In this document: one piece after another, positions 24,236 through 47,983 of the stretch
How positions within the stretch are numbered: position 1 is the stretch's first letter
Layout: each line of letters opens with the position of its first letter
Origin: Deroplatys truncata
Lineage: Eukaryota > Arthropoda > Insecta > Mantodea > Mantidae
NCBI GenBank assembly: GCA_030765065.1
Contig: CM060990.1
Location: 216,357,290-216,421,289 of the forward strand
Reading direction: 5' to 3'
Length of the DNA stretch: 64,000 nucleotides
Notes under the pieces: model-generated
Seen by the model: only the letters and a program-made list of their open reading frames with translations
What the model was told of the DNA's origin: nothing
The model's database searches: none
Program-made: the position numbers and the translations under genes

Positions 24236-24421
24236 ATGGTAATTGCAAGTTAAATAATTGCCCAATAGGAAAACTTGGGCAGTACAAAACGTATCAGGTT
24301 GATTAACGAAAAAGAGAAAGTTTCTGCTTAAACAAAACGTATAATACAAAAGGGTGGTTTTTTATTCCTTTGCTCTCAGCTGTCCTCGCGGAAATTTAAT
24401 TAAATTTAAATGTTGTAAAAA
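24236..24421. other. short intergenic segment of the Polinton
   Basis: AT-rich; no motif seen. Confidence 0.4.
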
Positions 24422-25098
24422 TTGTTATTGGCTTTCCCGGCATTTTTGAATGTAAATGCTTGTAAAAGAAAAAAAGAACGATTAGAAGAAAAAGCAAAGA
24501 TCTACAAGGAGTGGATTCAAAGAAGATCCAAGCTGCCGCTTGCGCTCCCGCCATCGCTGACGTCTCCCCCTGTCAGGAACAAATTGGTTTTCCCCTCCAA
24601 TAATGATGACGCCGCCGCCGCCGCCGCCCCAGTCGATTTAAGAAAGGAAGAGAAGCGGGAGGTTGAAAACTGTACAAAAGATAATTTCGGTCATCTTGCT
24701 GGATCCTATTTGGCGCCATATCTACACACACCTCGGGCTGCGGACAACGTTTTTTGGCATTTATAGAGATGAAGACGCAAGCTTTAAAATTGGGATTCTT
24801 TGATTAAAATAGAATTATTTATGTTAAAAATAAACATTTTAAGGGTATGAAAGGACTTTGGAAACTCTTAACGAGAAGAAATGTTCACATGTCTGCCGTA
24901 TTTTCAACACATATGAATAAATATAAACAAATTCCTCTGCTTACCAATGGACATTTGCAGAATAACGAACCTTTTAATCAGATCAAATCCAACAGGGGAA
25001 AGAAATACACGGATGTAATAGCAAAAGTATTTCCTTCGAAGGCCATCGGAGACGAACAGCAGCAGAGGTGGAGCACATATAAATGCGATAATGCATAA
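24422..25098 (+). pseudogene. conserved Polinton hypothetical protein (GLWELL type), frameshifted
   Basis: The first frame (24,422-24,766) starts with a charged helix (KRKKERLEEKAKIYKEWIQR, likely coiled coil), then a proline-rich and an alanine-rich linker (AAAAAAP from a GCC-repeat run) and ends RAADNVFWHL. After a frame change, 24,847-25,098 encodes KGLWKLLTRRNV, then YKQIPLLTNGHLQNNEP and NRGKKYTDVIAKVFPS. The pattern GLWELL...YKxIL...TN.HL...N.G.KY occurs in an uncharacterised protein common in arthropod Polintons, by memory of the family. Function unknown. It sits directly upstream of the integrase. Confidence 0.6.
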
Positions 25099-25119
25099 AA
25101 AAACATTTTCACGACCCAC

Positions 25120-25505
25120 GCTTTCTAAACATTCCACCAAATGCAATAAAAATGAACAAATACTGAAAGACTGGCTTTTGCAGTATGATGCCTACACTTA
25201 ACACGAACCTGCAAGAAAGCGATTTCAAAGAAATGTTTATACCGTAAACAACATGAATGATGTGTGGGAAGTTGATATGGCAGGTCTTCAGTGTTTGACC
25301 AAATGGAACGACGGCACCAAGTACATTTTGACGTGCGTGGACTGTTTCTCTAGATTCGCGTACGTATAGCCTTTAAAATCTAAGAGCAGTCGAGCCACCG
25401 CCGTTGCCTTCACCAAAATTCTAGCTGACGTCAGGCATCCTTTAGCCGTGAAATCTGGTAAGGAAAAATCATCTTTAAGATCCGATTTTCAAAATCTTTT
25501 GAAAT
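25120..25505 (+). pseudogene. Polinton retroviral-type integrase, N-terminal part (split by insert)
   Basis: Catalyses joining of Polinton ends to target DNA, leaving a 6-bp duplication. After one frame change near 25,200 the frame reads EPARKRFQRNVYTVNN, WEVDMAGLQCLTKWNDGTKY (first catalytic Asp) and LTCVDCFSRFAYV, followed by an in-frame TAG at about 25,368, then KSKSSRATAVAFTKIL. The region that should hold the second catalytic Asp (TDxGxEF in the family) reads VKSGKEKSS, so it is lost. Coding similarity runs up to LLKW at 25,505, where the nested element begins; it resumes at 44,390. Confidence 0.9.
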
Positions 25506-25511
25506 GGAGGG
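25506..25511. repeat. target site duplication of the nested palindromic element, left copy
   Basis: GGAGGG; the right copy at 44,384-44,389 is GGATGG (5 of 6 identical). Removing the insert and one copy brings the two integrase halves into the same frame, which confirms the boundary independently. Confidence 0.88.
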
Positions 25512-25544
25512 AGTAGCATATTATAGGGGAAGCTGGCACAGTGT

Positions 25545-26960
25545 TTTGCGTTTATATGGGAAAGGATAGGGAAAACGAGGGTATATGCTAGGTTCAGAGG
25601 CCCTTCAAGAGGGAAAAATGCGTTTATTTGGGGAAGATAGGGACTACGAGGATCGATGCTAGGCTAAGACAGGGGTTGAAGGACTGGGAATGTGCTTTAT
25701 ATGTGAAGGTAGGGAATACGAGAAGAAGTTCTATGCTAGACAGGGTTTGAGGTATGCAGAATGACTTTTTATGGGAAAGATAGGGAAAACGTGAACAGAT
25801 AATAGGCTAGACAGATGCTGAAGCAGGGGGAATATAGGCTTATACGGGAGAGATACGGAATGTAAGGAGAGGTACTCGACTAGACAGGGATTGAAGGGTA
25901 GAATATGACTTTTATATGGGAGAGGTATTAGGCTAGGAGGGTTTGAATGACAGAGTATGCGTTTATATGGAGAGACGAGGAAAACGAGGGGAGTAGCTAG
26001 GTTGGAGGAGCGTTCAAGGAGGAAAATGCGCTTATGTGGGAAAGGATAGGGAAAACGAGGGTAGATGCGACGGTTCAAGGAGGAAAATGCGTTTATAGGG
26101 GAGAGATAGGGAATACCAGGGCTGATGCTAGGCAAGTCAGATGCTAAAGGAGGGAGGGATACGCATTATACGAGATAGATAGGGAATACAAGGAAAGGTG
26201 CTATACTAAAACAGAACCTGAAGGGTGGAATATGGCGTTTTATATGGGAGAGATAGCGAGCCGAGGAGAGGTATTAGGCTAGGAGGTTTGAATGATAGAG
26301 TAGGCGTTGATATACGAGAGATAGGGAATACGAGGTCGATGCTAGGATAGACAGGGTTGAAGTAGGGGAATGTGCCTTATATGAGAGAGGTAGGGAATAT
26401 GAGGAGAATTGTTAGGCTAGACAGGGTTTGAGGTGTGGAATATGCGTTTATATGGGAAAGATAGGGAAAACGTGAGCAGATAATAGGCTAGACAGATGCT
26501 GAAGGAGGGGGATATAGGCTTATAGGGGAGAGAGATAGGGAATACGAGGAGAGGTGCTAGACTAGAGAGATGCTGACGGAGGAAGGGATACGCTTTATAC
26601 GGAAGAAATAGGGAATACGAGGAGAGGTACTAGACCATACAGAGGTTTAGAGTAGAGTATGCGTTTATATGTATGAGAGGTATAGGATCAGGAGGAGAGG
26701 TATTGGGCTAAGGAGGTTGAGTATGCGTTTATATGGAGAGACGAGGAAAACGAAGGTAGGTGCTAGGTTGAGAGAGTCTTCAAGGAGGAAAATGCATTTA
26801 TATGAGAGCGGTAGGGAATACGAGGAGAGGTGCTAGTCTTGACAAGGGTTGAGGAGTAGAGTATACGTTTATATGGGAGAAATATAGAAAACGGGTGTGG
26901 TACAAGGATAGACAGGGGTTGAAGGGGGAGGAGGAATGTAGGTTTATACGGTAATATAGA
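25545..26960 (+). repeat. 72-bp minisatellite at left terminus of palindrome 1
   Basis: About 20 diverged units of 70-74 bp with the core TTTATATGGGAAAGATAGGG, then AAAACGAGG or AATACGAGG, GTGCTAGGCTAGACAG and GGTTGAAGGA. The sequence is purine-rich on the plus strand. Long open frames across it (for example 25,731-26,135 minus) come from the missing stop codons in the repeat and are not genes. Confidence 0.9.
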
Positions 26961-27174
26961 GAGTAATTAGATTATAAAACATTTCTCATCCAACGTTACA
27001 ACACTTTTATATACTTTTTTTCTAAACCTTACAACATTTTTATATGTTAAACAGTAGTGCACGAGACGGAGAGGGACAAACTGTATATCGGTTCACAGTG
27101 AAGTATACGTCCTAACCTATCCCCACCTTGTATGCTCTATATCTTCTCATTGTCTATTCATTCCTATCATCATC

Positions 27175-27335
27175 TAACATAATCACGTAACAAGACGTAA
27201 CCAACAAACGTAACCAGTAACAAGACGTTACATCACGTGACATCTCGTAACCAGAAACGTCAGACGACGTAACAACACGTAGCAACCATTTAACCACGTA
27301 ACAAAACGTGAGAACAACACGTAACCAGCCCATTG
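27175..27335. repeat. ACGTAAC iteron cluster, left arm
   Basis: About a dozen copies of ACGTAAC or one-base variants (ACGTTAC, ACGTGAC, ACGTAGC) with irregular 3-12-base spacing in 150 bases. The mirrored cluster lies at about 42,575-42,725. Such iterons are typical of replication or transcription protein binding sites; no function is shown. Confidence 0.75.
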
Positions 27336-27783
27336 CTAAGGCAATCTAAACTAATCCATCCTTCATAACTTAGACAATAAGTACGAGGGCCTAGCCTAGA
27401 TTAACCTGACCAATCCCAAACGTTCCTCTCATCATCTGTTCTACTCAGTCATCGTCTAACCCAATCTAGCTATCCAGAGATAACCTCGACTTTCTTTTAG
27501 TGAAATTGCAATGTTTTATTCAGGTTTTAATATTCGAGAGTTTTAATTGAAAAGTTTACGTCAACATACCTTTATTTTAGTTCGTTGTAGGTGTCTCCCC
27601 CCTTTTTATCTAGGCTTGAGACTAGCACTAGGATTGCTCCTAATGGCAGGGTTACCACCTTCCCTTCCATCTTCTTCTTTCTTCATCAGTCGTCTGCTAG
27701 TTGCATACACAGCACACGGATAACCTTCATTTCTTTAAGATTGTAGACTCACGAGAAAATCTTTATCTTTGACTTACATTCTT
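27336..27783. other. spacer between iterons and polymerase 3' end, left arm
   Basis: No coding frame. Contains the block around GGGTTACCACCTTCCCTTCC that is mirrored in the right arm. It would be the 3' flank of the outward-reading polymerase gene. Confidence 0.4.
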
Positions 27784-30700
27784 TTAAGCGCTGGTTGTAA
27801 TGGTGTAATGTCCATACGCATATGTCATTATTTCATCCTCAGCAATAACTCTTTTATAATCAAAGGGACTCAATGTAATTTTATTCACTTGCACTGTGGT
27901 AACAGCGTGCTTTCGTGATAGGATTAGATTCATGGGTGTTCTGATGATTTCTCCGGTTTTAAGACAGTCAGCATAACTCTCAAATGTAATGTACTGATTA
28001 GTAGCACTACGTTTTATGCCTTTAATCTTTTTTATCATTGAGCGTTGGATATCTAGGGCGTACATCTTAGGTCGTAGTCCGACAAAGCGCAGGATGATTT
28101 TACCACTAGCCTCATCTTTAAATTTTCCCAACACCTTCTTGTTTAGAGCTGAATAGCATATATGGTTGACAGGGTAATCAGCTGTATCTAGGTGTTCGAG
28201 AAAACGTAGCTTGTCTACACATCTTCAGTCATCACACGATGAATGGACGCATCAGTGTCCATATACATCAGCTTCAGGTTTTCATATCCATAATATGGCA
28301 GCAACACATCATAATGATAGTGGTACATTAATGTCTTGGAGATGTCCAACACACTCATTCCAATGTATATAGGCTTGTTGAATACGATCTGACGAGAGGC
28401 CATATGCACAGCAGCTAGATTAGCAGCATATATTGTTCGATCGATAAACGTAGGCTTTGCAATTAACTTTTCCAGAGTTTTCTCGTTTGTCACCAACCGT
28501 ATATCCACACGATTACAAAGGTTTCCCATTGATTTTCCAAACATAGCATTGTTGAACAGTTTGTAGAGATCCTTCTCAAAATCATTTGCAGCCTTTTGTC
28601 GTAGTCTGTTGTTAAATTCCACATACGGTTTTAACCACTGTGACTGTCGGAACTGTAGCACACGATGGATTTTTGTTAACCGTAGTCCATGACTAAGAGC
28701 TTGCTTCAAAGTCATGTAATGTACTACATACTTCTTTCGTGATCCAAGATGAGGAATTAGCTTCTTTGTAGTCGAATCCTTTGGTTTCAGACACTCGGGC
28801 AGGAATGGTAAATCATTATGCAGATCATGGAAATCAGCAGGATACTCGATGTCAACTTCTAATATGTATCCATGAGGATCATCTTCTTCTAGTCTTTGTA
28901 AGTTTATTTCTTCAGGTGAAACCCACTGAAATCCACCAAACGGAAGGGCGTGACATATTTCCCAACCATATTGGTTATTAGCGTCCACGTATGTGATGAA
29001 TTCGGTTGGTCTCGACGGATCAAACTTGTCCATGTAAGTGTTATTAGCCTCTGCATACCGATGTGAAACTTGGCATAAACCTCCTCTTATGCCGGATTCC
29101 ACCATGAGTAGTTGGTCATAATCTTGCAACAGCTCCAGTGCGATTCCAGTATACAGTAACATGGCGTCCCATGTAAGTCCTGGAGAGGTAAAATAATGTG
29201 CTGGATCAACTTTGTGCGTTTTGAGGGTTTGATCTCTAAATGTCTCAAAGACATCAGCTAGAAGAAGTACATCAGATATTAAGCAGAGGTCGCTGTACTC
29301 ACCCAGGTTTCTTGCATTAAACAGCTCCCATACATTTCTAGCGTGATCGTAGTCAGCATCACTCTTCATTCAATTTATTGTAGAAAGAGTCCTTTGGAGG
29401 AAGGCAGGGTTTGTTCAAAACATCCCATGAAGTGACGTAATCATAGGGAAATACACCCTTACGTGTCAACAACTTCATCTTGTCTTCTCCGAAGTGTTTC
29501 AGTGTTTCAGGGTACGATATTAGATTCTTCACCAGCTTATCCAAGCTCGTACTGAGAAACCAAAAACTATCTACAAACCGAAGCTTTATATCTCCTACAT
29601 ACTTGGAGAATGATATATAGCTTTCTTCAGAGCTAGGAATTACTTCCACCCGCTCACTTGTACATCCCAGCTCCTTAACAATGAAGTGTGAGTCATATCC
29701 GCTGAGGTTGTGCATGAAGACTGGAATATATTTAGGTGTTTTGCAGGCTAAATTACATTCATTATGTAGACTTCCCCGATATTCACCACTGATGTGATCC
29801 TGGTCGCGTACTTTATAGTTCTCTTGAGTAAAGGTTTTTCCACACAAGTAGCATACTGTGGAGGCGATGAAATCCATCTGCTGTTGATCTGTAAGTTTCA
29901 GGGGCATGACAGATTTGTATATATTATTAATTTCCTTTGCAAGGAACGACAGATATTCCACAAACTTCTGAGAAGCATCAACACCACGATATACATAGGG
30001 ATGCTTAGGAAGACCAGTTTCGAGATGTTCAACGTTGGTTGATGGTTTAACATAAACGCAGAAACTCATGGGAACATGCTGCTGATAAGGGGATGTATAT
30101 GAAGTTTCAGGATTGGTTATGCATGTATGACATGGGGCGAGAATGCTTTCAAAGTCGGCGTAGATGACGTAAGGTAGTTTCAACATCCTTTCAAAATTTT
30201 TAAACTGTAGCCATAACTACCCTTGCAACACCATGCTGATTACAGATGGAGGCATGTTCTTGTAGTTTTTCCAGTCCACTTCGACCGCACTGATCATCAA
30301 AATGTGTAAAACAACGCTTACAGGTATAAACACGTTCTTTATGCATAGTTTTCTGACGTCGAATAAGTTTTTCAAAATTCTTTATATAGACGTAGTGATG
30401 TCTCCCACTACTGTCACTCAATAGCAGGAGGTCACGATGGTCAGGTAGTTCAATCTCAGCAACCTTTATCGGATACACTTCATGCTTATCAGCCAGACCG
30501 AAGACGTTGATAGACATCTTGTTAAGCTACTCAAATTTAGGTATTTGAGAAAGTGGCGTAGGGTAGGAAACACAGCTGAAGTCGTATTTATTTTGAAGTT
30601 CCACAGCAAGCAGAGCCCAATTGCTGCCCTTAAGCTGAGACTCCTCCATTTCAGTAACCATCTTCTTCATTTTCGTTTCCAACATAAAGTCCAGATCCGT

Positions 30701-31216
30701 TTCTAGGAAAACAGCTTGATTCCGTGTTTTAAATGTTTTGTCGCAGGTTTCTCCGACACTGTTAACAAATCTACACTCATCTAACAGATTAATTTTCACA
30801 CTTTTGTGAATACCAAGCTCTTTATGTACAGCCTGGATTATCCGCTGTTTCGCCTCATGCAGGTACATATTCAGGTCCTTAGCTGATTCACAACGTATAA
30901 AATATGATTTCAAGCGTCCATTGAACGAAGCTTCATATTCTTTCATGTCACAGTCGTCCAATGTAGAAAATAACTCATGCTTTGTCGATTCTAATCTACG
31001 TTTCTTCTCAGGTCTGTTTATTTCACACGCATCTTCGTGGCGGTGACCCTTATAACTGTCTTTGAAGGCTACATTACAATATTTACACTTGAAGAGCTTT
31101 CTACAACGTAGCTCATGTCGTCTTTTATCATATCCACGGAGGAACTTCTTACAGCATTTACCACAAGAATATCCTGAGGCACTAGGAATGATATCCTTAC
31201 ATGAGGACTTATTCAT
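27784..31216 (-). pseudogene. protein-primed-type DNA polymerase B with zinc fingers and endonuclease VII-like module, left-arm copy
   Basis: Reads outward, from 31,216 to 27,784, about 1,090 residues over five open pieces. Piece 1 (31,216-30,527): C2H2-like fingers, CGKCCKKFLRGYDKRRHELRC and CKYCNVAFKDSYKGHRHEDAC overlapping in tandem, then a basic linker. Piece 2: CKRCFTHFDD finger. Piece 3 (30,186-29,359): YADFES (exo I), CYLCGKTF with HISGEYRGSLHNECN (endonuclease VII-like), HNLSGYDSHF (exo II). Piece 4 (29,369-28,215): YSDLCLISDVLLLADVF (exo III), VDANNQYGWE (motif A), FNNAMFGKSMGNL (motif B), LMYMDTDA (motif C, Ser replaced by Ala). Piece 5: GKFKDE, GLRPKMYAL, TYAYGHY. Copy-specific lesions: TAG at about 30,526 and an 8-base deletion near 29,362. 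It differs strongly from the host Polinton polymerase. Confidence 0.93.
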
Positions 31217-31560
31217 TTTTCTTCTTGATATAATAAGGTATTAACCTTTCTTCAAGGAAATGTACGCCTCTTTACCTTGATAACGCTTTAGAAGTTTGAT
31301 TATTTTCTGAGAGAACAGCAATGTTAACACCTCAGAGATGATCAACAGATTGAAGTTCAATGCTAGAGGTCGCTCTATTTATAGAGGAAGCACGGACCTT
31401 TTTAGATCAATTATATCCTGATGATTAATACTAATAACGGTGATGAAGCGTGTAAGCTCTTATATTTAAATTCGTGTTACACTGATGTTCGAGCGTCTCC
31501 GTACAGTTTCGAGTGCTTAGAGAAAGTGTAATGTATTGCGAGGATGATGTATTGTTTGGC
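31217..31560. other. 5' flank of the left-arm polymerase
   Basis: Only the left arm has this segment. It holds the presumed promoter side of the gene; no TATA box that I would call. From 31,487 the sequence is homologous to 58,240-58,450 in palindrome 2. Confidence 0.45.
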
Positions 31561-31690
31561 TATAATCGTACAGATTCGGGGGCTTGACTCGTGAAGGTGA
31601 TGAACGATCCGTTGACCGAGCAAAAGGCAAGCATTCCCCCTGCGCAACGAAACCTAGAAGCAAAAAAGATGCGAATGAAAGTAAATCTGG
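31487..31690 (+). repeat. module shared between palindrome 1 and palindrome 2
   Basis: TTCGAGCGTCTCCGTA, ATGTATTGTTTGG, ATAATCGTACAGATTC and GCGCAACGAAACCTAGAAGC are shared with 58,240-58,450 (same orientation) and, in reverse complement, with 56,920-57,120. It links the two palindromes as relatives. Confidence 0.85.
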
Positions 31691-33425
31691 GCAGCATACG
31701 CCACGCAGGCATTCGCCTGCAGACCAGGGAAAACCACGAAAAATCCATAACCAGAGTGAGCGAACAATGGGAATCGAACCAGGGAGACCTTCAGATTGTT
31801 GATGTTAAAGATGTGAATTATATAGAATGGAAGGAAATCGTGACAGCATACACCTCTCAGGATTCGCCTGCAGCCCAAAGAAAACCATGAAAAATCCCAG
31901 GCTAGAGTGAGCGTCGAACGGGACCAGAACCAGGGACTCTAGAAGCATACCTGAAAGATATAAATGAAAAAGATTTAAAGGGAAAGGAAAACGGAATCAA
32001 CGAGAAACCGCCCATGCGTTCGCCTGCAGACCAAGGCAAACCATAAAAAATATGATGTAGGAGTGAGCAACCAATGGGTATCGAACTCCTGAACCCTAAA
32101 AGCACACGTAAAAGATGCAGATTATATAGAATAAGAGGAAATCGGAATCGATGACAAACCATTCAGACATTCGCCTACAGACCAGGGAAAACCACAAAAA
32201 TCTCATGCTAGACTGAGCGTCGAACGGGACTTGAACCAGGGACTCTAGAAGCATACGTGAAAGATATAAATGAAAAAGATTTAAAGGGAAAGGAAAACGG
32301 AATCAACGAGAAACCACCCAGGCGTTCGCCTGCAGACCAAGACAAGCCATAAAGAATATGATGTCGGAGTGAGAAACCAATGGGTATCGAACTCCTGAAC
32401 CCTAAAAGCACACGTAAAAGATGCAAATTATATAGAATGAAAGTAAATCGTGATAGATGAGAAACCACCCACACATTCGCCTACAGACCAGGCAAAATCA
32501 CGAAAAATATGATGTCAGAGTGAACAACCAACGGCAGTCGAACGAGGGAAACCTTCAGATTGTATACGTGAAAGATGTAAATCAAATAAAATGAAAGAAA
32601 ATCGTGATAGATGGGGTACCACTCAGGCATTCGCCTGCACACCAGGGAAAAACCATGAAAAATCCCAGGATAGAGCGAGCGACAGACGGGAACCCAAACA
32701 AAGGAGCCTAGAAGCACACGTGAAAGATGTAAATCAAATAAAATGAAAGAAAATCGTGATAGATGAGAAGCCACCCAGATATTCGCCTACAGACCGGGGA
32801 AAATCACGAAAAATATGATGTCAGAGTGAACAACCAACGGCAATCGAACGAGGGAAACCTTCGGATTGCACACGTGAAAGATGTAAATCAAATAAAATGA
32901 AAGAAAATCGTGATAATTGAGAAAACCAATCAGGCATACGCATGCACACCAGGGAAAACCATGAAAAATTCCAGAATAGAGCGAGCGACCGACAGGGAAA
33001 TCAAACAAAGGACTAGAAGCACACGCGAAAGATGTAAATCAAATAAAATGAAAGAAAATCGAAATCGATGAGAAACCACTCAGGCATTCGCTCGCAGACC
33101 AGGGAAATCGAAAAAATCTAATGTCAGAGTGAACATCCAACGGCAATCGAACCAGGGAGATCTTCAGATTGTACAGTGAAAGATGTAAATTATATGGAAT
33201 GAAAGGAAATCGCGATAGATGAGAACCCAGCCAGGCATTCGCCTGCAGACCAGCGAAACCCGCGAAAAATCTGAGGTCAGAGTGAACAGCCGATGGTAAT
33301 CGAACCAGGGAGACCATCGGATTATACACGTGAAAGATGTAAATGAAAGGAAAAATAAATCGCGATAGATGAGAAACCGCCCAGGCATTCGCAGGCAGAG
33401 CAGCGAAAACTGCGAGAAACCTAAG
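31690..33425 (-). repeat. ~155-bp tandem array with B-box-like motif per unit, left arm
   Basis: About 11-12 units, landmarks GCATTCGCCTGCAGACCAGG near 31,709, 32,018, 32,168, 32,324, 32,475, 32,629, 32,781, 32,936, 33,085, 33,236 and 33,389. On the minus strand each unit carries CCTGGTTCGATTCCC or a near variant, which fits the pol III B-box consensus (GGTTCGANTCC), followed by a TTTTTCGTGGTTTTCCCTGG stretch and AGGCGAATGCCTG. Long open frames here are chance products of the repeat. Confidence 0.88.
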
Positions 33426-33429
33426 GTCA

Positions 33430-33515
33430 GAGTGACCGTTCCTGCGGAAATCGAACCCACGACCTCGAATGCAAGTCATATACGTTATCGTCTGAACCAG
33501 ACCGTAAAAACAGGT
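33430..33515 (-). repeat. tRNA-like block at the inner end of the array, left arm
   Basis: Minus strand: GGTCTGGTTCAGACGATAAC (D-arm/A-box-like), GACTTGCATTCGAGGTCG (anticodon-arm-like) and GTGGGTTCGATTTCC (B-box). It resembles the head of a tRNA-derived SINE; a mirrored copy is at 36,705-36,790 and relatives occur in palindrome 2. The acceptor stem does not close, so it is not a tRNA gene. Confidence 0.7.
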
Positions 33516-34830
33516 TAATACCATACAACTCATAACAATAGAATGCCGTGCCAGATGACGTCATACCTGTAGACAGACTGTCGGGGGTCAGTCGACAGGC
33601 TGAAACGCGCTTGATCGTTCAGACAGATGTTTACATTCAATGCCTACCATACCAACACCTCAATCCATTTCACAGCAAAGTTAAAATGTTTTTATTATAA
33701 GACTTTCTCTCTTTATTTAATTAAATTCATGTATATACCCTATTATTTCACGTTTTTAGTACTTTCTTTCCCTCGTCCCTCTCATTCACCCTAAAGAATC
33801 AGTACACAATATGACATTTTTATTCGCTTAATGTCCATTTATCACAGAAAACCATGCTTAATTCGCAGTTATCACAGAAACCGCTCACGAGCAAAGTATT
33901 TTTTTCCAGAGTTACACGGATTTTAAGCTTGTAGGATCGTATTAGAAAATGTATCATATTTTATCAGTTCAAAGAGGGTAAACATTTTTAAAGTCATCGA
34001 TTCCAGCTATTTACACTTAGCGTAAAGATTATGATATTTCATTTTTAAAGCCGTCTTGTTAAATATAATGTCTCGCAATCCATTTTTAAAATTAAATCAT
34101 ACATGCGTTTAATGCATATAATGGATGTCTTCATATACCCAATATGGCTGCTTTGCACGTTAAACCATTCAATATGGCTGCTTCCTCACAGCTACTCGCG
34201 GTGAGTGGGACCGCGTGCTTTCGACTCTCTCCGCTAGAGTGAGCGTACTCTGTAGGTTGAGAGCTGTAGCGTGAGGGTAGCAGGGGGAGGCTACCGGTCC
34301 TAGCGAGAGTGGGGCGGGAATAACCAGGTCTAATTAGGGATGCAGTATAGAGGACACTTCACTATGCCCGAGAGGCTCGTCCAGGGAGGAAGTATAGCTG
34401 TCGCATTCATTTTAAGACGCGTCGACGTATCGCGTGTTCGTTACGTTATTTTTACCTCTTTTAGTCATGCATTCATCCAAGAGATGTAATTTCATCAGGA
34501 CGACAGTAGTCAAATATGCATTACAAAGAAAATAGTTTTATTTATAAACCTTTATTCGACGTCTTTATCTTAATTACTTTTTGATGTTATTCGAAGATGA
34601 ATTTATATTCATGTCACGCGATTCAGCCTAAGACCACCAGGTCAACTTGGAACAGCAGTCAATGACGCATCACATTCTAAAGATATAATCACCCTTTACC
34701 GCATATCGCTATCTCTTTCCATTCAGGAGATATACGCATTTAATGGTAATAATATATTTTGTGACACACCGCCAATTAAAATAGTCTGTAATCGAATTAA
34801 TTACCTCACAGTAGATAATATATGGCGACT
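33516..34830. other. inner, non-coding part of the left arm
   Basis: AT-rich up to 34.15 kb, then a GC-rich stretch at 34,190-34,330 (CCGCTAGAGTGAGC, GTCCTAGCGAGAGTGGGGCG), then AGTCATGCATTCATCCAAGA, whose relative AGTCATGAATTCATCTAAG stands at 62,377 in palindrome 2. No coding frame. Confidence 0.6.
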
Positions 34831-35394
34831 GGGGGCTTCAAAGAGATGTTGACGACTCCCACCCCCGCTTTGTATGCTATTCTGACGCCGCCATTAACGA
34901 TGAGAACAATAATGCATTGTCCTGCGTCTCTGATTTGCGGTGAAAGAATAGCACACAAAAGCAAAGGCGTGAAAACACTTAACCTTTGTGGTATCACCCT
35001 TAAAAGCTACTGGACCCCGATCCCCCTCCACTGTGCTCTACTCCAAAGCTGGCATAAGCGATGAGAACAATAGCCCATTGTTCTCCAATACCGAGGTCTG
35101 CATTAGGTCAGGCCACAAATAGGGGGAGTGGTCACACCCCCTCCGCAGAGAGGCCTGACAGTACAGCACAAAGAGAGGGCGTGCTCAGTGTACGGGGTAG
35201 GATCCGAAAGGCGAGGGGTGGGGTGTGCTCAGCTGTGCAAGGGAGAGGCCACGAGGGGAGGGGAGGGGGCGTGGTCTGCCGGCACGCGATGGGGCGGCAA
35301 ACAGTAGAGCACAAAGCAAGGAGGAGGAGCTGGCGGCTTTTAAGTGTGAGACCACAAAGGAAGGGGGTGGAGTCGGCGTATTCCTTTGTTCTCA
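34831..35394. other. central spacer of palindrome 1
   Basis: The only single-copy part of the element. Contains hairpin-prone blocks of the type ACAATAGCCCATTGTTC at about 34,905 (variant) and 35,068, each after GATGAGA, and blocks GGGGGAGTGGTC and GGGGGCGTGGTC with AGGCCACAA. The same set occurs at 62,800-63,140. No gene. In a palindromic element the spacer would form the loop of a hairpin or cruciform. Confidence 0.7.
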
Positions 35395-36704
35395 AGTCGC
35401 CACATAATATCTACTGTGAGGTAATTAATTCGATTACAGGCTATTTATTTGGCGGTGCGTCACAAAAAAAATATTATTACCGTTAAATGCTTATATCTCC
35501 TGAATGGAAAGAGATAGCGATATGCGGTAAAGGGTGATTATATCTTTAGAATGTGATGCGTCATTGACTGCTGTTCCAAGTTGACCTGGTGGTCTTGGGC
35601 TGAATCGCGTGACATGAATATAAATTCATCTTCGAATAACATCAAAAAGTAATTAAAATAAAGACGTCGAATAAAGGTTTATAAATAAAACTATTTTCTT
35701 TGTAATGCATATTTGACTACTGTCATCCTGATGAAATTACATCTCTTGGATGAATGCATGAAGAGGTAAAAATAACGTAACGAACACGCGATACGACGAC
35801 GCGTCTTAAAATGAATGCGAGAGCTATACTTCCTCCCTGGACGAGCCTCTCGGGCATACTGAAGTGTCCTCTATACTGCATCCCTAATTAGACATGGTTA
35901 TTCCCGCCCCACTCTCGCTAGGACCGGTAGCCTCCCCCCGCTACCCTCACGCTACAGCTCTCAACCTACAGAGCACGCTCACTCTAGCGGAGAGAGTCGA
36001 AAGCACGCGGTCCCACTCACCGCGAGTAGCTGTGAGGAAGCAGCCATATTGAATGGTTTAACGTGCATGGCAGCCATATTGGGTATATGAAGACATCCAT
36101 TATATGCATTAAACGCATGTATGATTTAATTTTAAAAATGGATTGCGAGACATTATATTAAACAAGACGGCTTTAAAAATGAAATATCATAATCTTTACG
36201 CTAAGTGTAAATAGCTGGAATCGATGACTTTAAAAATGTTTACCCACTTTGAACTGATAAAATATGATAAATTTTCTAATACGATCCTACAAGCTTAAAA
36301 TCCGTGTAACTCTGGAAAAAAATACTTTGCTCGTGAGCGGTTTTCTGTGATAACTGTGAATTAAGCATGGTTTTCTGTGATAAATGGACATTAAGTGTAT
36401 AAAAATGTCATATTGTGTACTGATTCTTTAGGGTGAAGAGAGGGACGAGGGAAAGAAAGTACTAAAAACGTGAAATAATAGGGTATATACATGAATTTAA
36501 TTAAATAAAGAGAGAAAGTCTTATAATAAAAACATTTTAACTTTGCTGTGAAATGGATTGAGGTGTTGGTATGGTAGGCATTGAATGTAAACATCTGTCT
36601 GAATGATCAAGCGCGTTTCAGCGTGTCGACTGACCCCGACAGTCTGTCTACAGGTATGACGTCATCTGGCACGGCATCCTATAGTTATGAGTTGTATGGT
36701 ATAA

Positions 36705-36790
36705 ACCTGTTTTTACGGTCTGGTTCAGACGATAACGTCTGTGACTTGCATTCGATCGTGGGTTCGATTTCCGTAGGAACGGTCACTCTG
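36705..36790 (+). repeat. tRNA-like block, right arm
   Basis: Mirror of 33,430-33,515, with TGGTTCAGACGATAACGTCT and GTGGGTTCGATTTCC on the plus strand. A single base change alters the middle arm (CATTCGATCG). Confidence 0.7.
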
Positions 36791-36799
36791 ACCTTAGGT

Positions 36800-38096
36800 T
36801 TTTCGCAGTTTTCGCTGCTCTGCCTGCGAATGCCTGGGGGTTTCTCATCTATCGCGATTAATTTTCCCTTTCATTTTACCGTTCACGTGTATAATCCGAT
36901 GGTCTCCCTGGTTCGATTACCATCGGCTGTTCACTCTGACCTCAGATTTTTCGCGGGTTTCGCTGGTCTGCAGGAGAATGCCTCTCATCTATCGCGGATT
37001 TCTTTTCATTCTATATAATTTACATCTTTCACTGTACAATCTGAAAATCTCCCTGGTTCGATTGCCGTTGGATGTTCACTCTGACTTTAGATTTTTCTCG
37101 ATTTCCCTGGTCCGCGGGCGAATGCCTGAGTGGTTTCTCATCGATGTCTATTTTCTTTCATTTTATTTGATTTACATCTTTCGCGTGTGCTTCTAGTCCT
37201 TTGTTTGATTTCCCTGTCGGTCGCTCACTCTATTCTGGGATTTTTCATGGTTTTCCCTGGTCTGCATGCGAATGCCTGAGTGGTTTTCCCATCTATCACG
37301 ATGTTCTTCCATTTTATTTGATTTACATCTTTCACGTGTGCTTCTAGGCTCCTTTGGTTGGGTTCACGTCTGTCGCTCGCTCTATCCTGGGATTTTATAT
37401 GGTTTTTCCATGGTGTGCAGGCGAATGCCTGAGTGGTACCCCATCTGTCACGATTTTCATTCATTTTATTTGATTTACATCTTTCATGTGTACAACCTGA
37501 AGGTTTCCCTCGTTCGATTGTCGTTGGTTGTTCACTCTGACATCATATTTTTCGTGATTTTCCCCGGTTTGTAGGTGAATGTCTGGGTGGTTTCTCATCT
37601 ATCACGATTTTCTTTCATTTTATTTGATTTACATCTTTCATGTGTACAATCTGAAGGTTTCCCTCGTTCGATTGCCGTTGGTTGTTCACTCTGTCATCAT
37701 ATTTTTCGTGATTTTGCCTGGTCTGTAGGCGAATGTCTGGGTGGTTTCTCATCTATCACGATTTACATTCATTCTATATAATTTGCATCTATTACGTGTG
37801 CTTTTGGGGTTCAGGAGTTCGATACCCATTGGTTGCTAACTCCTACATCATATTTTTTATGGCTTGTCTTGGTCTGCAGGCAAACGCCTGGGTGGTTTCT
37901 CATTGATTCCGTTTTCCTTTCTCTTTAAATATTTTTCATTTATATCTTTCACGTATGCTCCTAGAGTCCCTGGTTCGAGTCCCGTTCGACGCTCACTCTA
38001 GCCTGAGATTTTTCGTGGTTTTCCCTGGTCTGTAGGCGAATGTCTGAGTGGTTTCTCATCGATTCCGATTTCCTTTTATTCTATATAATCTGTTCG
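36800..38096 (+). repeat. ~155-bp tandem array, right arm
   Basis: Nine units, AGGCGAATGCCTG landmarks near 36,825, 36,970, 37,120, 37,268, 37,420, 37,575, 37,728, 37,880 and 38,035. B-box-like GGTTCGATTGCCGTTGG and relatives occur once per unit. The array stops at TCTATATAATCTG, where the left arm goes on with further units. Confidence 0.88.
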
Positions 38097-38275
38097 ACTT
38101 CGTATCCACAAGTACAATTCGTTACGAAGAAGTAGCTACATACCACTACCGCCATCTGTTGAAGCAAGAAAAGCCTGCGTAAATATCCAGAACTTTGCCG
38201 ACGAGAGCTGTTTCATGTACTCTATATTAGCTAAATTCATAGGGAAGAATGCACAGCGTGTGAACAAATACAAAC
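38097..38275. other. filler between array and polymerase in right arm
   Basis: About 180 bases without a counterpart in the left arm, standing in place of about 1.5 kb. It contains an open start (38,215) that runs into the polymerase frame, but this upstream part (YSILAKFIGKNAQR) is not part of the polymerase family as far as I can tell. Confidence 0.55.
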
Positions 38276-41200
38276 AAGTTCAAAATAAATACGACTTCAG
38301 CTGTGTTTCCTACCCTACGCCACTTTCTCAAATACCTAAATTTGAGAAGCTTAACAGGATGTCTATCAACGTCTTCGGTCTGGATGATAAGCATGAAGTG
38401 TATCCGATAAAGGTTGCTGAGACTGAACTACCTGACCACCGTGACCTCCTGCTATTGAGTGACAGTAGTGGGAGACATCACTACGTCTATGTAAAGAATT
38501 TTGAAAAACTTATTCGACGTCAGAAAACTATGCATAAAGAACGTGTTTATACCTGTAAGCGTTGTTTTACACATTTTGATGATCAGTGCGGTCGAAGTGG
38601 ACTGGAAAAACTACAAGAACATGCCTCCATCTGTAATCAGCATGGTGTTGCAAGGGTAGTTATGGCTACAGTTTAAAAATTTTGAAAGGATGTTGAAACT
38701 ACCTTACGTCATCTACGCCGACTTTGAAAGCATTCTCGCCCCATGTCATACATGCATAACCAATCCTGAAACTTCATATACATCCCCTTATCAGCAGCAT
38801 GTTCCCATGAGTTTCTGCGTTTATGTTAAACCATCAACCAACGTTGAACATCTCGAAACTGGTCTTCCTAAGCATCCCTATGTATATCGTGGTGTTGATG
38901 CTTCTCAGAAGTTTGTGGAATATCTGTCGTTCCTTGCAAAGGAAATTAATAATATATACAAATTTGTCATGCCCCTGAAACTTACAGATTAACAGCAGAT
39001 GGATTTCATCACCTCTACAGTATGCTACTGGTGTGGAAAAACCTTTACTGAAGAGAACTATAAAGTACGCGACCAGGATCACATCAGTGGTGAATATCGG
39101 GGAAGTCTACATAATGAATGTAATTTAGCCTGCAAAACACCTAAATATATTCCAGTCTTCATGCACAACCTCAGCGGATATGACTCACACTTCATTGTTA
39201 AGGAGCTGGGATGTACAAGTGAGCGGGTGGAAGTAATTCCTAGCTCTGAAGAAAGCTATATATCATTCTCCAAGTATGTAGGAGATATACAGCTTCGGTT
39301 TGTAGATAGTTTTCGGTTTCTCAGTACGAGCTTGGATAAGCTGGTGAAGAATCTAATATCGTACCCTGAAACACTGAAACACTTCGGAGAAGACAAGATG
39401 AAGTTGTTGACACGTAAGGGTGTATTTCCCTATGATTACGTCACTTCATGGGATGTTTTGAACAAACCCTGCCTTCCTCCAAAGGACTCTTTCTACAATA
39501 AATTGAATGAAGAAGAAATTAGTGATGCTGACTACGATCACGCTAGAAATGTATGGGAGCTGTTTAATGCAAGAAACCTGGGTGAGTACAGCGACCTCTG
39601 CTTAATATCTGATGTACTTCTTCTAGCTGATGTCTTTGAGACATTTAGAGATCAAACCCTCAAAACGCACAAAGTTGATCCAGCACATTATTTTACCTCT
39701 CCAGGACTTACATGGGACGCCATGTTACTGTATACTGGAATCGCACTGGAGCTGTTGCAAGATTATGACCAACTACTCATGGTGGAATCCGGCATAAGAG
39801 GAGGTTTATGCCAAGTTTCACATCGGTATGCAGAGGCTAATAACACTTACATGGACAAGTTTGATCCGTCGAGACCAACCCAATTCATCACATACGAGGA
39901 CGCTAATAACCAATATGGTTGGGAAATATGTCACGCCCTTCCTTTTGGTGGATTTCAGTGGGTTTCACCTGAAGAAATAAACTTACAAAGACTAGAAGAA
40001 GATGATCCTCATGGATACATATTAGAAGTGGACATCGAGTATCCTGCTGATTTCCATGATCTGCATAATGATTTACCATTCCTGCCCGAGTGTCTGAAAC
40101 CAAAGGATTCGACTACAAAGAAGCTAATTCCTCATCTTGGATCACGAAAGAAGTATGTAGTACATTACATGACTTTGAAGCAAGCTCTTAGTCATGGACT
40201 ACGGTTAACAAAAATCCATCGTGTGCTACAATTCCGACAGTCACAGTGGTTAAAACCGTATGTGGAATTTAACAACAGACTACGACAAAAGGCTGCAAGT
40301 GATTTTGAGAAGGATCTCTACAAACAGTTCAACAATGCTATGTTTGGAAAAACAATGGAAAACCTTTGTAATCTTGTGGATATTTAAGTAACATTATTTG
40401 TATATGTTTGTTTTTGTTAGCCCCACATTTGGGAGGCAATTTGCGAGTGTATTTCTTATAATGTTTGTGTATTTGTGTTTACTTCACGCGTTGAAGCCAT
40501 CTTGTGACGTGATTCATTTGTTAGGTTTGTTAGCTCCATCTGGTGTTACCAATTTGCGGTAGTATTAGTGTTTGAAAGAATGCGACTGTTATTTGTTTTA
40601 ATTTTTGTTTACTGTCCTCCGGCTAGCTATTATCTTTTCTTGGGTCGAGCACTTCTCTTTATACAGGTTGTGTAAACGGAAAGGAATCTTTTATCCAAAG
40701 ATAACACTAATGAAGAAATTTATTATACACTTTTATTGTCGAAACACAGTCACTATCACATTTACATATTGATCTTGACACTCGCCAAACTGTAACTGTT
40801 ATAATAACTTCATTACTGATAATTCTTAATTCGCGTACTTCAACTTTTTCTATAATTAGCTTTATAACACTTGAGATTTCATAACTCTGTTACGCGTAAC
40901 CTGCAAATTGATATCCGAAGTGTGCCGTACAAATACTTTCGACGAACTGACGGGAATGCGACGTGTAGTGTACAAAGAATTTTGATGAACTGGGGGCGAT
41001 CTACCTCTGACTTGGCTTTTTATACTCATACACCCAGATATGCCTAAAGATTATAACTGAACTGCAATTGGCTAATAAAACGCGCCAACATTAGCGTCTA
41101 TTTTAATATCCAATGAAAATTATGAATACATATGCTCTAGGGAAATGTTACAGAAGATTCTAAACGCGCCAACATTACGTAACTTCCTCGTTTCCAACAA

Positions 41201-42112
41201 TGATAAACAGCTCACCCCCTCGCTGCATTATTGCACGCTATTATTGTCAGTTTCAGTAAGGCAGTATAAACTTACTTCTCAACAATAATTACAATCAATA
41301 AACATCTCAAATCAATGTCACATAAAAATGCATATTCATATTACAATCGTTATTTACATTTAAGTAATTTGTGATACAAATTACTGCATCAATATACGGT
41401 TGGTGACAAACGAGAAAACTCTGGAAAAGTTAATTGCAAAGCCTACGTTTATCGGTCGAACAATATATGCTGCTAATCTAGCTGCTGTGCATATGGCCTC
41501 TCATCAGATCGTATTCAACAAGCCTATATACATTGGAATGAGTGTGTTGGACATCTCCAAGACATTAATGTACCACTATCATTATGATGTGTTGCTGCCA
41601 TATTATGGATCTGAAAACCTGAAGCTGATGTATATGGACACTGATGCGTTCATTCATCGTGTGATGACTGAAGATGTGTAGACAAGCTACGTTTTCTCGA
41701 ACACCTAGATACAGCTGATTACCCTGTCAACCATACATGCTATTCAGCTCTAAACAAGAAGGTGTTGGGAAAATTTAAAGATGAGGCTAGTGGTAAAATC
41801 ATCCAGCGCTTTGTCGGACTGCGACCTAAGATGTACGCCCTAGATATCCATGGCTCAATGATAAAAAAGATTAAAGGCATAAAACGTAGTGCTATTAATC
41901 AGTATATTACATTTGAGAGTTATGCTGACTGTCTTAAAACCGGAGAAATCATCAGAACACCCATGAATCTAATCCTATCACGAAAGCACGCTGTTACCAC
42001 AGTGCAAGTGAATAAAATTACATTGAGTCCCTTTGATTATAAAAGAGTTATTGCTGAGGATGAAATAACGACATATGCGTATGGACATTACGCCATTACA
42101 ACCAGCGCTTAA
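38276..42112 (+). pseudogene. DNA polymerase B, right-arm copy, N-terminally truncated and interrupted
   Basis: Near-identical to the left-arm polymerase from its second piece onward, reading outward on the plus strand. It lacks the first zinc-finger piece. Open pieces: 38,276-38,676 (CKRCFTHFDD finger), 38,690-38,992 (exo I YADFES), 38,999-40,387 (endonuclease VII-like HISGEYRGSLHNECN, exo II HNLSGYDSHF, exo III SDVLLLADVF, motif A DANNQYGWE, motif B FNNAMFGKTMENL), then a 1-kb insertion, 41,400-41,681 (motif C LMYMDTDAF) and 41,762-42,112 (C-terminus, YAYGHY). A TAA at 38,990 is specific to this copy, while the left copy's 8-base deletion and TAG are absent here. Two further breaks are shared with the left copy. 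Confidence 0.93.
40384..41391. mobile_element. 1.0-kb insertion in the right-arm polymerase, type unknown
   Basis: Absent from the left arm, where GGATATACGG is continuous; here it is split into GGATAT and ATATACGG, so a short ATAT duplication is possible. Both ends carry TTTAAGTAA (40,383 and 41,359), and the right end has an imperfect hairpin (AATTTGTGATACAAATT). No coding frame. It could be a solo LTR or a non-autonomous DNA transposon. Confidence 0.55.
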
Positions 42113-42574
42113 AAGAATGTAAGTCAAAGATAAAGATTTTCTCGTGAGTCTACAATCTTAAAAAAATGAAGGTTATCCGTGTGCTGTGTATGCAACTAGC
42201 AGACGACCGATGAAGAAAGAAGAAGATGGAAGGGAAGGTGGTAACCCTGCCTTTAGGAGCAATCCTAGTGCTAGTCTCAAGCCTAGATAAAAAGGGGGGA
42301 GACACCTACAACGAACTAAAATAAAGGTATGTTGACGTAAACTTTTCAATTAAAACTCTCGAATATTAAAACCTGAATAAAACATTGCAATTTCACTAAA
42401 AGAAAGTCGAGGTTATCTCTGGATAGCTAGATTAGGTTAGACGATGACTGAGTAGAATAGATGATGAGAGGAACGTTTGGGATTGGTCAGGTTAATCTAG
42501 GCTAGGCCCTCGTACTTATTGTCTAAGTTATGAAGGATGGATTAGTTTAGATTGCCTTAGCAATGGGCTGGTTA
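42113..42574. other. spacer between polymerase 3' end and iterons, right arm
   Basis: Mirror of 27,336-27,783; non-coding. Confidence 0.5.
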
Positions 42575-42725
42575 CGTGTTGTTCTCACGTTTTGTTACGT
42601 GGTTAAATGGTTGCTACGTGTTGTTACGTCGTCTGACGTTTCTGGTTACGAGATGTCACGTGATATAACGCCTTGTTACTGGTTACGTTTGTTGGTTACG
42701 TCTTGTTACGTGATTATGTTAGATG
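42575..42725. repeat. ACGTAAC (GTTACGT) iteron cluster, right arm
   Basis: Mirror of 27,175-27,335: repeated GTTACGT, GTTACGTC and GTCACGTG-type motifs. One unit differs from the left arm (ATAACGCC for ACGTTAC-type). Confidence 0.75.
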
Positions 42726-42939
42726 ATGATAGGAATGAATAGACAATGAGAAGATATAGAGCATACAAGGTGGGGATAGGTTAGGACGTATACTTCACTG
42801 TGAACCGATATACAGTTTGTCCCTCTCCGTCTCGTGCACTACTGTTTAACATATAAAAATGTTGTAAGGTTTAGAAAAAAAGTATATAAAAGTGTTGTAA
42901 CGTTGGATGAGAAATGTTTTATAATCTAATTACTCTCTA

Positions 42940-44345
42940 TATTACCGTATAAACCTACATTCCTCCTCCCCCTTCAACCCCTGTCTATCCTTGTACCACA
43001 CCCATTTTCTATATTTCTCCCATATAAACGTATACTCTACTCCTCAACCCATGTCAAGACTAGCACCTCTCCTCGTATTCCCTACCGCTCTCATATAAAT
43101 GCATTTTCCTCCTTGAAGACTCTCTCAACCTAGCACCTACCTTCGTTTTCCTCGTCTCTCCATATAAACGCATACTCAACCTCCTTTGCCCAATACCTCT
43201 CCTCCTGATCATATACTCTCATACATATAAACGCATACTCTACTCTAAACCTCTGTATGGTCTAGTACCTCTCCTCGTATTCCCTATCTCTTCCGTATAA
43301 AGCGTATCCCTTCCTCCGTCAGCATCTCTCTAGTCTAGCACCTCTCCTCGTATTCCCTATCTCTCTCCCCTATAAGCCTATATCCCCCTCCTTCAGCATC
43401 TGTCTAGCCTATTATCTGCTCACGTTTTCCCTATCTTTCCCATATAAACGCATATTCCACACCTCAAACCCTGTCTAGCCTAACAATTCTCCTCATATTC
43501 CCTACCTCTCTCATATAAGGCACATTCCCCTACTTCAACCCTGTCTATCCTAGCATCGACCTCGTATTCCCTATCTCTCGTATATAAACGCCTACTCTAT
43601 CATTCAAACCTCCTAGCCTAATACCTCTCCTCGGCTCGCTATCTCTCCCATATAAAACGCCATATTCCACCCTTCAAGTCCTGTTTTAGTATAGCACCTT
43701 TCCTTGTATTCCCTATCTATCTCGTATAATGCGTATCCCTCCCTCCTTTAGCATCTGACTTGCCTAGCATCAGCCCTGGTATTCCCTATCTCTCCCCTAT
43801 AAACGCATTTTCCTCCTTGAACCGTCGCATCTTCCCTCGTTTTCCCTATCCTTTCCCACATAAACGCATTTTCCTCCTTGAACGCTCCTCCAACCTAGCT
43901 ACTCCCCTCGTTTTCCTCGTCTCTCCATATAAACGCATACTCTGTCATTCAAACCCTCCTAGCCTAATACCTCTCCCATATAAAAGTCATATTCTACCCT
44001 TCAATCCCTGTCTAGTCGAGTACCTCTCCTCACATTCCGTATCTCTCCCGTATAAGCCTATATTCCCCCTGCTTCAGCATCTGTCTAGCCTATTATCTGT
44101 TCACGTTTTCCCTATCTTTCCCATAAAAAGTCATTCTGCATACCTCAAACCCTGTCTAGCATAGCACTTCTTCTCGTATTCCCTACCTTCACATATAAAG
44201 CACATTCCCAGTCCTTCAACCCCTGTCTTAGCCTAGCATCGATCCTCGTAGTCCCTATCTTCCCCAAATAAACGCATTTTTCCCTCTTGAAGGGCCTCTG
44301 AACCTAGCATATACCCTCGTTTTCCCTATCCTTTCCCATATAAAC
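42940..44345 (-). repeat. 72-bp minisatellite at right terminus of palindrome 1
   Basis: Mirror of 25,545-26,960 with the same order of unit variants, which shows that the whole array was copied as part of the arm and not independently amplified. Confidence 0.9.
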
Positions 44346-44383
44346 GCAAAACACTGTGCTAGCTTCCCCTATAATATGCTACT

Positions 44384-44389
44384 GGATGG
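44384..44389. repeat. target site duplication of the nested element, right copy
   Basis: GGATGG, directly after the ACT terminus; it carries the codon register of the integrase. Confidence 0.88.
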
Positions 44390-45020
44390 GCATCGAACAC
44401 CAGGTAAAATTTAAATCCAGACATAAAATGCCCCATGGTAGAACGATTCAATCGAACTTTAAAGACAGGCATTATAAATACTTCACATACAAAAGCTCGT
44501 ACCGCTATGTAGTTGCTTTAAGTAAATTTGTCAAGGCTTACAATGGCTCCGTTCATTCCTAAGTAGGAATTTTACCCCCAGACGTTAATGCTAGGAACAT
44601 TCTGCGAATGTGGAATAAATTAAAATTAAAGATGGATCAGGTGAGGAAAAGACCTGTTAAATTTACCGCGGGACTAACCGTCAGAATCGGCAAGGAAAAT
44701 GTGAAGTTTGACAAAGGTTATGAACAACACTATTCCACGGATTTTTTTTAATTTATCAAGGTTATTAAACATTCACCTCAACTAGTTTACAAATTGGAGG
44801 ATCTTAACAAAGCTCCTATAAAAGGACAATTTTACAGCTACGAGCTTACACCTGTTAAAATAACAGAAACACAGTTTTTAAAATAGATAAGGTATTAAAG
44901 ACCAGGGTGCGTAGGAGCATTAAAGTGCTTTTCGTCAGATGGAAAGGAAACGGACCTAAATTTGATAGTCGGATTAACGCTAATTGGATGAGTTCTTTGT
45001 TAGCTCCTAAGGGATGCTAG
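44390..45020 (+). pseudogene. Polinton integrase, C-terminal part with chromodomain-like tail
   Basis: Continues the integrase split at 25,505: GIEHQVKFKSRHKMPHGRTI, then HYKYFTYKSSYRYVVALSKF and VKAYNGSVHS, a stop at about 44,560, then in frame GILPPDVNARN. Following segments are KFTAGLTVRIGKENVKFDKG, YEQHYSTDFF, LVYKLEDLNKAPIKGQFY and SYELTPVKITETQFLK, typical of the Polinton integrase C-terminus, and finally VLFVRWKGNGPKFDSRINAN, which resembles a chromodomain and might guide target choice. The third catalytic residue, Glu, is not evident: HGRTIQ stands where KASxVE is usual. Several stops. Confidence 0.9.
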
Positions 45021-47976: not shown

Positions 47977-47983
47977 GCTTCTA

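What the first reader, a model, noticed from the sequence alone, without database searches (positions are those of the whole stretch)
25512..44383. An 18.9-kb near-perfect palindrome that carries only a DNA polymerase B, twice
Seen: two ~9-kb inverted arms around a 564-bp spacer, each with its own outward-reading polymerase B, bounded by AGT...ACT ends and a 6-bp duplication. I can find no integrase, ATPase or capsid gene in it. Known: Polintons carry integrase, capsid and ATPase genes and have short to moderate terminal repeats; bidnaviruses and linear plasmids use protein-primed polymerases with terminal repeats. Inference: this could be a distinct class of self-replicating palindromic element, or a satellite that brings its own polymerase but borrows integration functions. 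The arms being nearly complete fold-backs suggests replication through a hairpin or a dimer-like intermediate.
Basis: partly seen in the sequence, partly recalled or inferred. Interest (0 to 1): 0.92.

Follow-up and report, generated by a model that had tools for sequence, protein, structure and literature searches.

The report
Palindromic polymerase-only satellite of Polintons
This animal genome holds many copies of a 15-20 kb mobile element that is one giant palindrome whose only recognised gene is a DNA polymerase, once in each half; it likely copies itself with that polymerase and would have to borrow the integrase of full virus-like elements (Polintons) to enter chromosomes.

Summary
The palindrome is real and is not a one-off. 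At 25512-44383 two inverted arms (about 98.9% alike outside, 98% in the unique inner part) flank a ~557-bp spacer. It has AGT...ACT tips, a 6-bp target duplication (5 of 6 bases) and splits the integrase gene of an older, degraded Polinton (17719-50497). In the same 4.29-Gb genome, 10 of 10 fetched copies (picked for a two-sided centre) are palindromes; 8 keep most of the PolB block in both arms. Six of six with both tips in view have perfect, different 6-bp duplications. Fifteen of 20 halves could be bounded and are at least 99.7% covered by the window element: no added genes. A PolB search not selected for palindromes gave 11 neighbouring pairs, all inverted. Both arms of a copy are nearest relatives. 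PolB pN/pS is 0.26 between copies, 0.82 within: constrained while mobile, decaying after insertion. So this is a Polinton-derived, palindromic, polymerase-only satellite family. Borrowed integration and fold-back replication are inferred; arm-to-arm gene conversion also occurs. One complementary 12.2-kb Polinton with integrase, ATPase and capsid genes but no PolB was read in the same genome; a split-genome reading could not be tested on further copies.

The parts
25512..44383 (.). Palindromic PolB-only element (18,872 bp)
   Evidence: family copies
25506..25511 (.). Left copy of 6-bp target duplication (GGAGGG; native site reads GGATGG)
44384..44389 (.). Right copy of 6-bp target duplication (GGATGG)
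25512..27000 (.). Left tip AGTAGC and subterminal ~70-bp tandem repeats
42895..44383 (.). Right tip and subterminal repeats, inverted copy
27784..31240 (-). Left-arm PolB in broken frames: 30530-31240 (N-terminal, contains ATG), 30203-30526, 29362-30216, 28218-29369, 27787-28224
   Evidence: (DNA_pol_B_2)
38089..42112 (+). Right-arm PolB in broken frames: 38089-38673, 38660-38992, 38993-40387, 41364-41678, 41672-42112; N-terminal ~1 kb missing
   Evidence: (DNA_pol_B_2, E 1.4e-20)
40384..41395 (.). 1,012-bp insertion present only in the right arm, inside PolB, with a short A/T duplication
31486..33410 (.). Left inner ~150-bp tandem array and its base
36783..38084 (.). Right inner ~150-bp tandem array, inverted
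33465..34835 (.). Left inner unique part of the palindrome
34836..35392 (.). Asymmetric centre (spacer)
   Evidence: about the same junction in the two-sided copies
35393..36755 (.). Right inner unique part
17719..50497 (+). Older host Polinton (13.9 kb without the palindrome), AGT..ACT ends, perfect TSD CTGGTG, TIR 77%
25214..25511 (+). Integrase gene of the host Polinton, left piece (rve E 9.9e-5 on 25214-25369)
44384..45000 (+). Integrase gene of the host Polinton, right piece (end approximate)

Best explanation
The feature is one copy of a multicopy mobile family whose whole genome is a 15-20 kb palindrome with a DNA polymerase B gene in each arm and no other recognised gene; it likely replicates by its own protein-primed polymerase and would integrate with an integrase supplied by full Polintons. 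Shown: at least 20 places with a palindrome or an inverted PolB pair; unit insertion with different 6-bp duplications and Polinton-type AGT tips; no added genes in the halves examined; purifying selection on PolB between copies and near-neutral decay within copies; arms of a copy nearest to each other. Inferred: since the two-sided copies of one search share the centre junction, the palindrome arose once for them, from the PolB end of a Polinton. Protein priming starts at either tip; the displaced single strand folds back on itself and one arm serves as template for the other, so each new copy starts nearly symmetric; Polinton integrase acting in trans inserts it, in this case into another Polinton's integrase gene. 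In the chromosome the arms then decay, with some arm-to-arm gene conversion.
For: Family: centre search 108 matches from 40 scored of 1,753 first-look candidates; PolB search 41 matches from 40 scored of 6,405, with 11 of 11 neighbouring pairs (within 15 kb, the window's own included) in the + then - arrangement. 10 of 10 fetched copies, picked for a two-sided centre, are palindromes; 8 keep at least 1.7 of 2.1 kb of the PolB block in both arms, in 2 one arm has lost most or all of it. 6 of 6 copies with both tips in view have perfect 6-bp duplications, all different; 11 of 12 tips begin AGT. 15 of 20 halves have a defined end and are covered 99.7-100% by the window element. Nearest neighbour is the partner arm for each arm whose partner is in the alignment in the two outer blocks (24 of 25 rows; the odd row lacks its partner) and for 21 of 22 rows in the inner block. 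pN/pS 0.82 within (11 pairs, 69 syn, 216 nonsyn) and 0.26 between (314 non-independent pairs). PolB kinship: 6,360 homologues among 7,986 scored, best 70%; relative L001 has PolB plus rve integrase, A32-type ATPase and a weak capsid match. Polinton end motif and 6-bp TSD: PMC8097293, passages and section 7. Integrase-like genes, many with open frames of ~309 aa, are plentiful in the genome (129 scored of 9,144); one of them, L039, was checked and lies in a Polinton.
Against: No unbroken PolB was seen: longest open frame 662 aa in the 20 halves and 906 aa in the six loci L033-L038, against 1,286 aa in relative L001, so activity today is not shown. Protein priming is by kinship only; the structure model of a relative's N-terminal part was poor (mean pLDDT 57). 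Arm differences are patchy in 8 of 12 copies tested, so gene conversion could make arms alike without fold-back replication. The PolB pairs are 1 bp to 8.2 kb apart, and for several the centre was not shown to be the same, so more than one origin is possible. Selection between copies could in part reflect non-palindromic relatives. 15 of 41 PolB matches were not resolved as paired. The window PolB has the same frame break in both arms, so this copy was probably not self-sufficient when its arms last matched.
Confidence: 0.72

Rival explanations
1. The palindrome is mobile as a unit, but its arms stay alike through arm-to-arm gene conversion in the chromosome, not through fold-back copying during replication; replication is ordinary protein-primed strand displacement from both tips.
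For: Arm differences cluster: heterogeneity p<0.05 in 8 of 12 copies tested, extreme in D11 and D327, where PolB is 0.3% and 0.2% different but the neighbouring block 3.1% and 1.3%.
Against: Other inverted repeats nearby are not kept alike: host Polinton TIRs 77%, second palindrome 90-91%, though these may be older. Four of the 12 copies show no significant clustering. None of this excludes both processes.
Confidence: 0.35
2. Passive by-product: palindromes behave like defective-interfering genomes, copied by the polymerase of full Polintons, and their own PolB is cargo.
For: All PolB frames examined are broken; this copy's PolB has the same break in both arms.
Against: pN/pS 0.26 between copies against 0.82 within; the two-sided copies share the centre junction, so the selected lineage was probably already palindromic.
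Confidence: 0.14
3. Each palindrome formed in place from a normal inserted Polinton, by repair copying of one half onto the other.
For: Would keep TSDs at both ends; the shared frame break in the window copy fits.
Against: About the same centre junction and spacer recur in copies with different target sites.
Confidence: 0.03
4. Assembly artefact (false fold-back).
For: Large palindromes are a known assembly hazard (recalled); one pair in the genome has no spacer at all.
Against: Arms differ by substitutions, indels and a 1-kb insertion; TSDs; many independent loci.
Confidence: 0.01

Closest known systems
Polintons/Mavericks (polintoviruses, adintoviruses)
   Same: AGT-type tips, 6-bp target duplication, PolB of a lineage found with integrase and ATPase genes and a capsid-like gene in relative L001
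   Different: No integrase, ATPase, protease or capsid gene recognised; two PolB genes; inverted arms of about 9 kb against TIRs of 46-1,447 bp in intact vertebrate Mavericks (PMC8097293, section 7)
Bidnaviruses
   Same: PolB of Polinton origin used outside a Polinton, inverted terminal repeats (PMC4061559, passages); bipartite genomes (recalled)
   Different: Bidnaviruses carry a parvovirus-type capsid gene and helicase (PMC4061559, passages); neither was recognised here
Palindromic defective adenovirus genomes (recalled, not found in the papers searched)
   Same: Protein-primed linear genome with one end duplicated head to head
   Different: Here an integrated, multicopy family whose polymerase shows selection
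Foldback transposons (recalled: FB, Galileo)
   Same: Very long inverted arms with internal tandem repeats
   Different: Polinton-type tips and 6-bp TSD; PolB instead of a cut-and-paste transposase
Cytoplasmic linear plasmids
   Same: Polinton-derived PolB without the capsid module (PMC11071308, passages)
   Different: Chromosomal integration with TSD; palindromic; only PolB

Membership tests
Polinton/Maverick | 6-bp target site duplication | tested here: met
   6 of 6 assessable copies perfect; window copy 5 of 6 bases
Polinton/Maverick | AGT/AG-type end motif | tested here: met
   11 of 12 tips of six copies begin AGT; window AGTAGC at both ends; motif from PMC8097293
Polinton/Maverick | Family B DNA polymerase of the Polinton type | tested here: met
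   DNA_pol_B_2; related to PolB of L001/L002; broken in the copies seen
Polinton/Maverick | Protein priming (terminal-protein domain) | tested here: inconclusive
   An OTU-like Cys segment lines up with L001 and L002; structure model poor
Polinton/Maverick | Retroviral-type integrase in the element | tested here: not met
   No Pfam hit in 47 frames; no tblastn hit in the 20 halves of 10 copies with integrases of L001 and the host Polinton; no uncovered segment of 300 bp in 15 halves
Polinton/Maverick | Packaging ATPase and jelly-roll capsid genes | tested here: not met
Polinton/Maverick | Short to moderate terminal repeats around single-copy genes | tested here: not met
   Arms make up nearly the whole element
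Bidnaviridae | Parvovirus-type capsid and helicase | tested here: not met
   No such Pfam family in the 47 frames scanned
Foldback transposon | Cut-and-paste transposase and its own length of target duplication (recalled) | tested here: not met
   6-bp TSD with Polinton tips; no transposase family in 47 frames

The most novel reading that the evidence does not exclude
A split Polinton: one virus-like genome divided into two separately integrating elements, a palindrome that carries only the DNA polymerase and a 12.2-kb element that carries integrase, packaging ATPase, phospholipase and capsid but no polymerase (C5:65794451-65806673, AGTAGT tips, perfect TSD TGGCTC), each needing the other.
Probability: 0.2. 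Interest if true: 0.96.

Novelty: new variant of a known kind. Interest (0 to 1): 0.88.

Why it matters
Polintons are thought to bridge transposons, adenoviruses, bidnaviruses and linear plasmids. A lineage whose entire genome is a palindrome with the polymerase alone would show that the replication module can live as a satellite on Polinton integration. Its two arms carry an internal record of each copying cycle, so fold-back replication of Polintons, for which no direct evidence was found here, becomes testable from genome sequence. It also means that some of the many polymerase-like genes annotated in animal genomes could be satellites and not viruses.

Tried and rejected
Older inner hairpin: inner arms of the window copy are more diverged than outer arms (2.1% v 1.1%, p 0.009), which suggested a pre-existing inverted repeat that nucleated the fold-back. 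In the ten other copies the inner block is also more diverged, but so it is between copies, and inner arms cluster by copy too (21 of 22), so the idea was dropped. The tandem array shared with a second palindrome gave no mechanism. N-terminal PolB piece: no homologues at E 0.001. Host-Polinton capsid-like frame: 5 unnamed hits. Profile comparison of a host-Polinton fragment with the palindrome's PolB: no match; that this fragment is PolB rests on recalled motifs. PHROGs on L001/L002: packaging-ATPase matches and one weak unknown. First viral-contig scan with the PolB piece: no relative; scan with the exact tip: none. Rfam and tRNA scans of the window: none. PDB by sequence: nothing relevant. 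Literature searches for palindromic, non-autonomous or split Polintons (listings; passages of seven papers, and one section of PMC8097293) found no such element; Repbase and most subscription papers were not searched.
Full report
OBSERVATION. The palindrome exists at the stated place. Outer arms are 98.9% and 98.4% identical, the inner unique parts about 98%. The centre is an asymmetric ~557-bp spacer. Complementarity ends exactly at AGT/ACT. Arm-specific changes (an 8-bp and a ~1-kb deletion, a 1,012-bp insertion, array copy-number differences, 1-2% substitutions) argue against a false fold-back.

WHERE IT SITS. The left flank encodes part of a retroviral-type integrase (rve E 9.9e-5) and the right flank continues it; joined at the target, the frame runs across the GGATGG site. 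The split gene has further stops and frame breaks. It belongs to an older Polinton at 17719-50497 with AGT tips, 77% TIRs and a perfect CTGGTG duplication. Other frames lie at 46237-47874; their identity as capsid genes is not established.

CONTENT. PolB pieces match DNA_pol_B_2 and 6,360 proteins among 7,986 scored; the named ones in the 120 listed are mostly arthropod, and the best is 70% in a bee entry on a 2.2-kb contig. Relatives of this PolB lie in viral contigs L001 (with rve integrase, A32-type ATPase and a weak capsid match below cut-off) and L002. In the palindrome no other Polinton gene was found: 47 of 123 frames of 50 aa or more scanned with Pfam, tblastn with L001/L002 genes. In this copy both PolB genes are broken; one frame break is at the same place in both arms. 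In the 824 codons compared between the arms, 25 differ in sense (one of them a stop) and 7 are silent.

FAMILY. The centre gave 108 matches from 40 scored of 1,753 candidates, with the second arm ending at about the same query position in the two-sided copies. The PolB block gave 41 matches from 40 scored of 6,405 candidates. These hold 11 neighbouring pairs, all + then -, with 1 bp to 8.2 kb between the blocks; of the 19 unpaired ones, 4 lie beside a centre match and 15 are unresolved. Candidate numbers are not copy numbers; pairs and fetched copies together make 20 distinct places, the window included. I fetched 10 centre copies, picked for a two-sided centre. All 10 are palindromes. Eight keep at least 1.7 of the 2.1 kb of the PolB block in both arms; in two copies (L015/L016 and L021/L022) one arm has lost most or all of it. 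In six both tips were found, with duplications CATAGC, AATATA, CGCAGT, AGCGGC, AACGGG and AACCAT, each perfect; lengths 15.3-19.8 kb. In the other four an end was not found or lay outside the stretch. Fifteen of the 20 halves have a defined end and are covered 99.7-100% by the window palindrome, so none of these brings extra genes.

EVOLUTION. In blocks 27001-28500 and 28501-30597, arms within copies differ by 1.27-3.10% and 0.24-2.83% (11 pairs in each) and arms of different copies by a median of 5.7% and 7.3% (314 pairs each; minima 3.01% and 2.84%, so the ranges just overlap in the first block). Each arm whose partner is present has the partner as nearest neighbour, 24 of 25 rows in each block; none groups by side. 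In the inner block 21 of 22 do. PolB pN/pS is 0.82 within copies and 0.26 between; pairs between copies are not independent. Arm differences are unevenly spread in 8 of 12 copies tested, so conversion between arms probably contributes.

MECHANISM. Shown: unit insertion, Polinton-type ends, polymerase only, selection while mobile, concerted arms. Inferred: protein priming at both tips, fold-back copying of one arm onto the other, integrase from Polintons in trans. The genome has plenty of integrase-like genes, many with open frames of ~309 aa (129 scored of 9,144 candidates); only one was looked at more closely.

A POSSIBLE PARTNER. That integrase locus was read in four stretches. It is a 12,223-bp element with identical 15-base tips AGTAGTAAAATAAAT, a perfect TGGCTC duplication and TIRs of about 0.75 kb at 91.8%. 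It carries integrase (rve 4.3e-9), A32-type ATPase (1.4e-4, just under the curated cut-off), a phospholipase/adenovirus-pX protein (1.1e-12 and 2.1e-7) and a double-jelly-roll protein (2.4e-78), but no PolB was found: of 25 PolB rows one (P0055) hits it, strongly with its last ~130 residues (E 3e-14), which I take to be a neighbouring gene fused in that prediction, and once weakly (E 0.012); all 25 hit the palindrome. If that fusion is real, PolB and this gene are neighbours in another insect, which would fit a unified ancestor. Against a two-part genome: the two elements share only the AGTAG tip, with no other terminal similarity at E 0.001, only one such element was read, and the host Polinton seems to have had its own PolB (recalled motifs).

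KNOWN CONTEXT. Vertebrate Mavericks have (AGT)2 ends, 6-bp duplications, TIRs of 46-1,447 bp and 12.7-24.6 kb length (PMC8097293, passages and section 7). Nine of the Polintons without a capsid gene in PMC4028283 also lacked protease and ATPase (passage). No palindromic, polymerase-only Polinton turned up in the searches listed under Tried and rejected.

Noticed in passing
window 50703-62645: A second palindrome (arms 90-91%, ~1-kb centre, a left-arm-only 2.3-kb insertion with a DUF659/hAT-like frame, weak match). No clear target duplication. Its outer arms are 72-76% similar to the terminal region of the integrase/capsid element, and its inner part shares the ~150-bp array with the PolB palindrome.
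   Followed up: partly
L040, L039, L041, L042 (G000:C5:65794451-65806673): Complete-looking Polinton with integrase, ATPase, phospholipase and double-jelly-roll genes but no PolB found, perfect TSD.
   Followed up: partly
G000:C16:517896746-517899809: Two PolB blocks meet head to head with no spacer (1 bp apart); either a new fold-back product or an assembly error.
   Followed up: no
G000:C72:159931-165772: Two integrase matches in inverted outward orientation about 5 kb apart; perhaps an integrase-bearing palindrome.
   Followed up: no
window 40384-41395: 1,012-bp A/T-rich insertion in the right-arm PolB with a short A/T duplication.
   Followed up: partly
window 19338-19671 and 20626-20929: Inverted pair (83%) of polymerase-like fragments inside the host Polinton; identity recalled from motifs.
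   Followed up: no
window 63817-64000: 98% copy of 56514-56697 at the window edge: palindrome 2 may belong to a repeat family.
   Followed up: no
window 31375-31400: TATA-box-like sequence upstream of the left-arm PolB start (read by eye).
   Followed up: no
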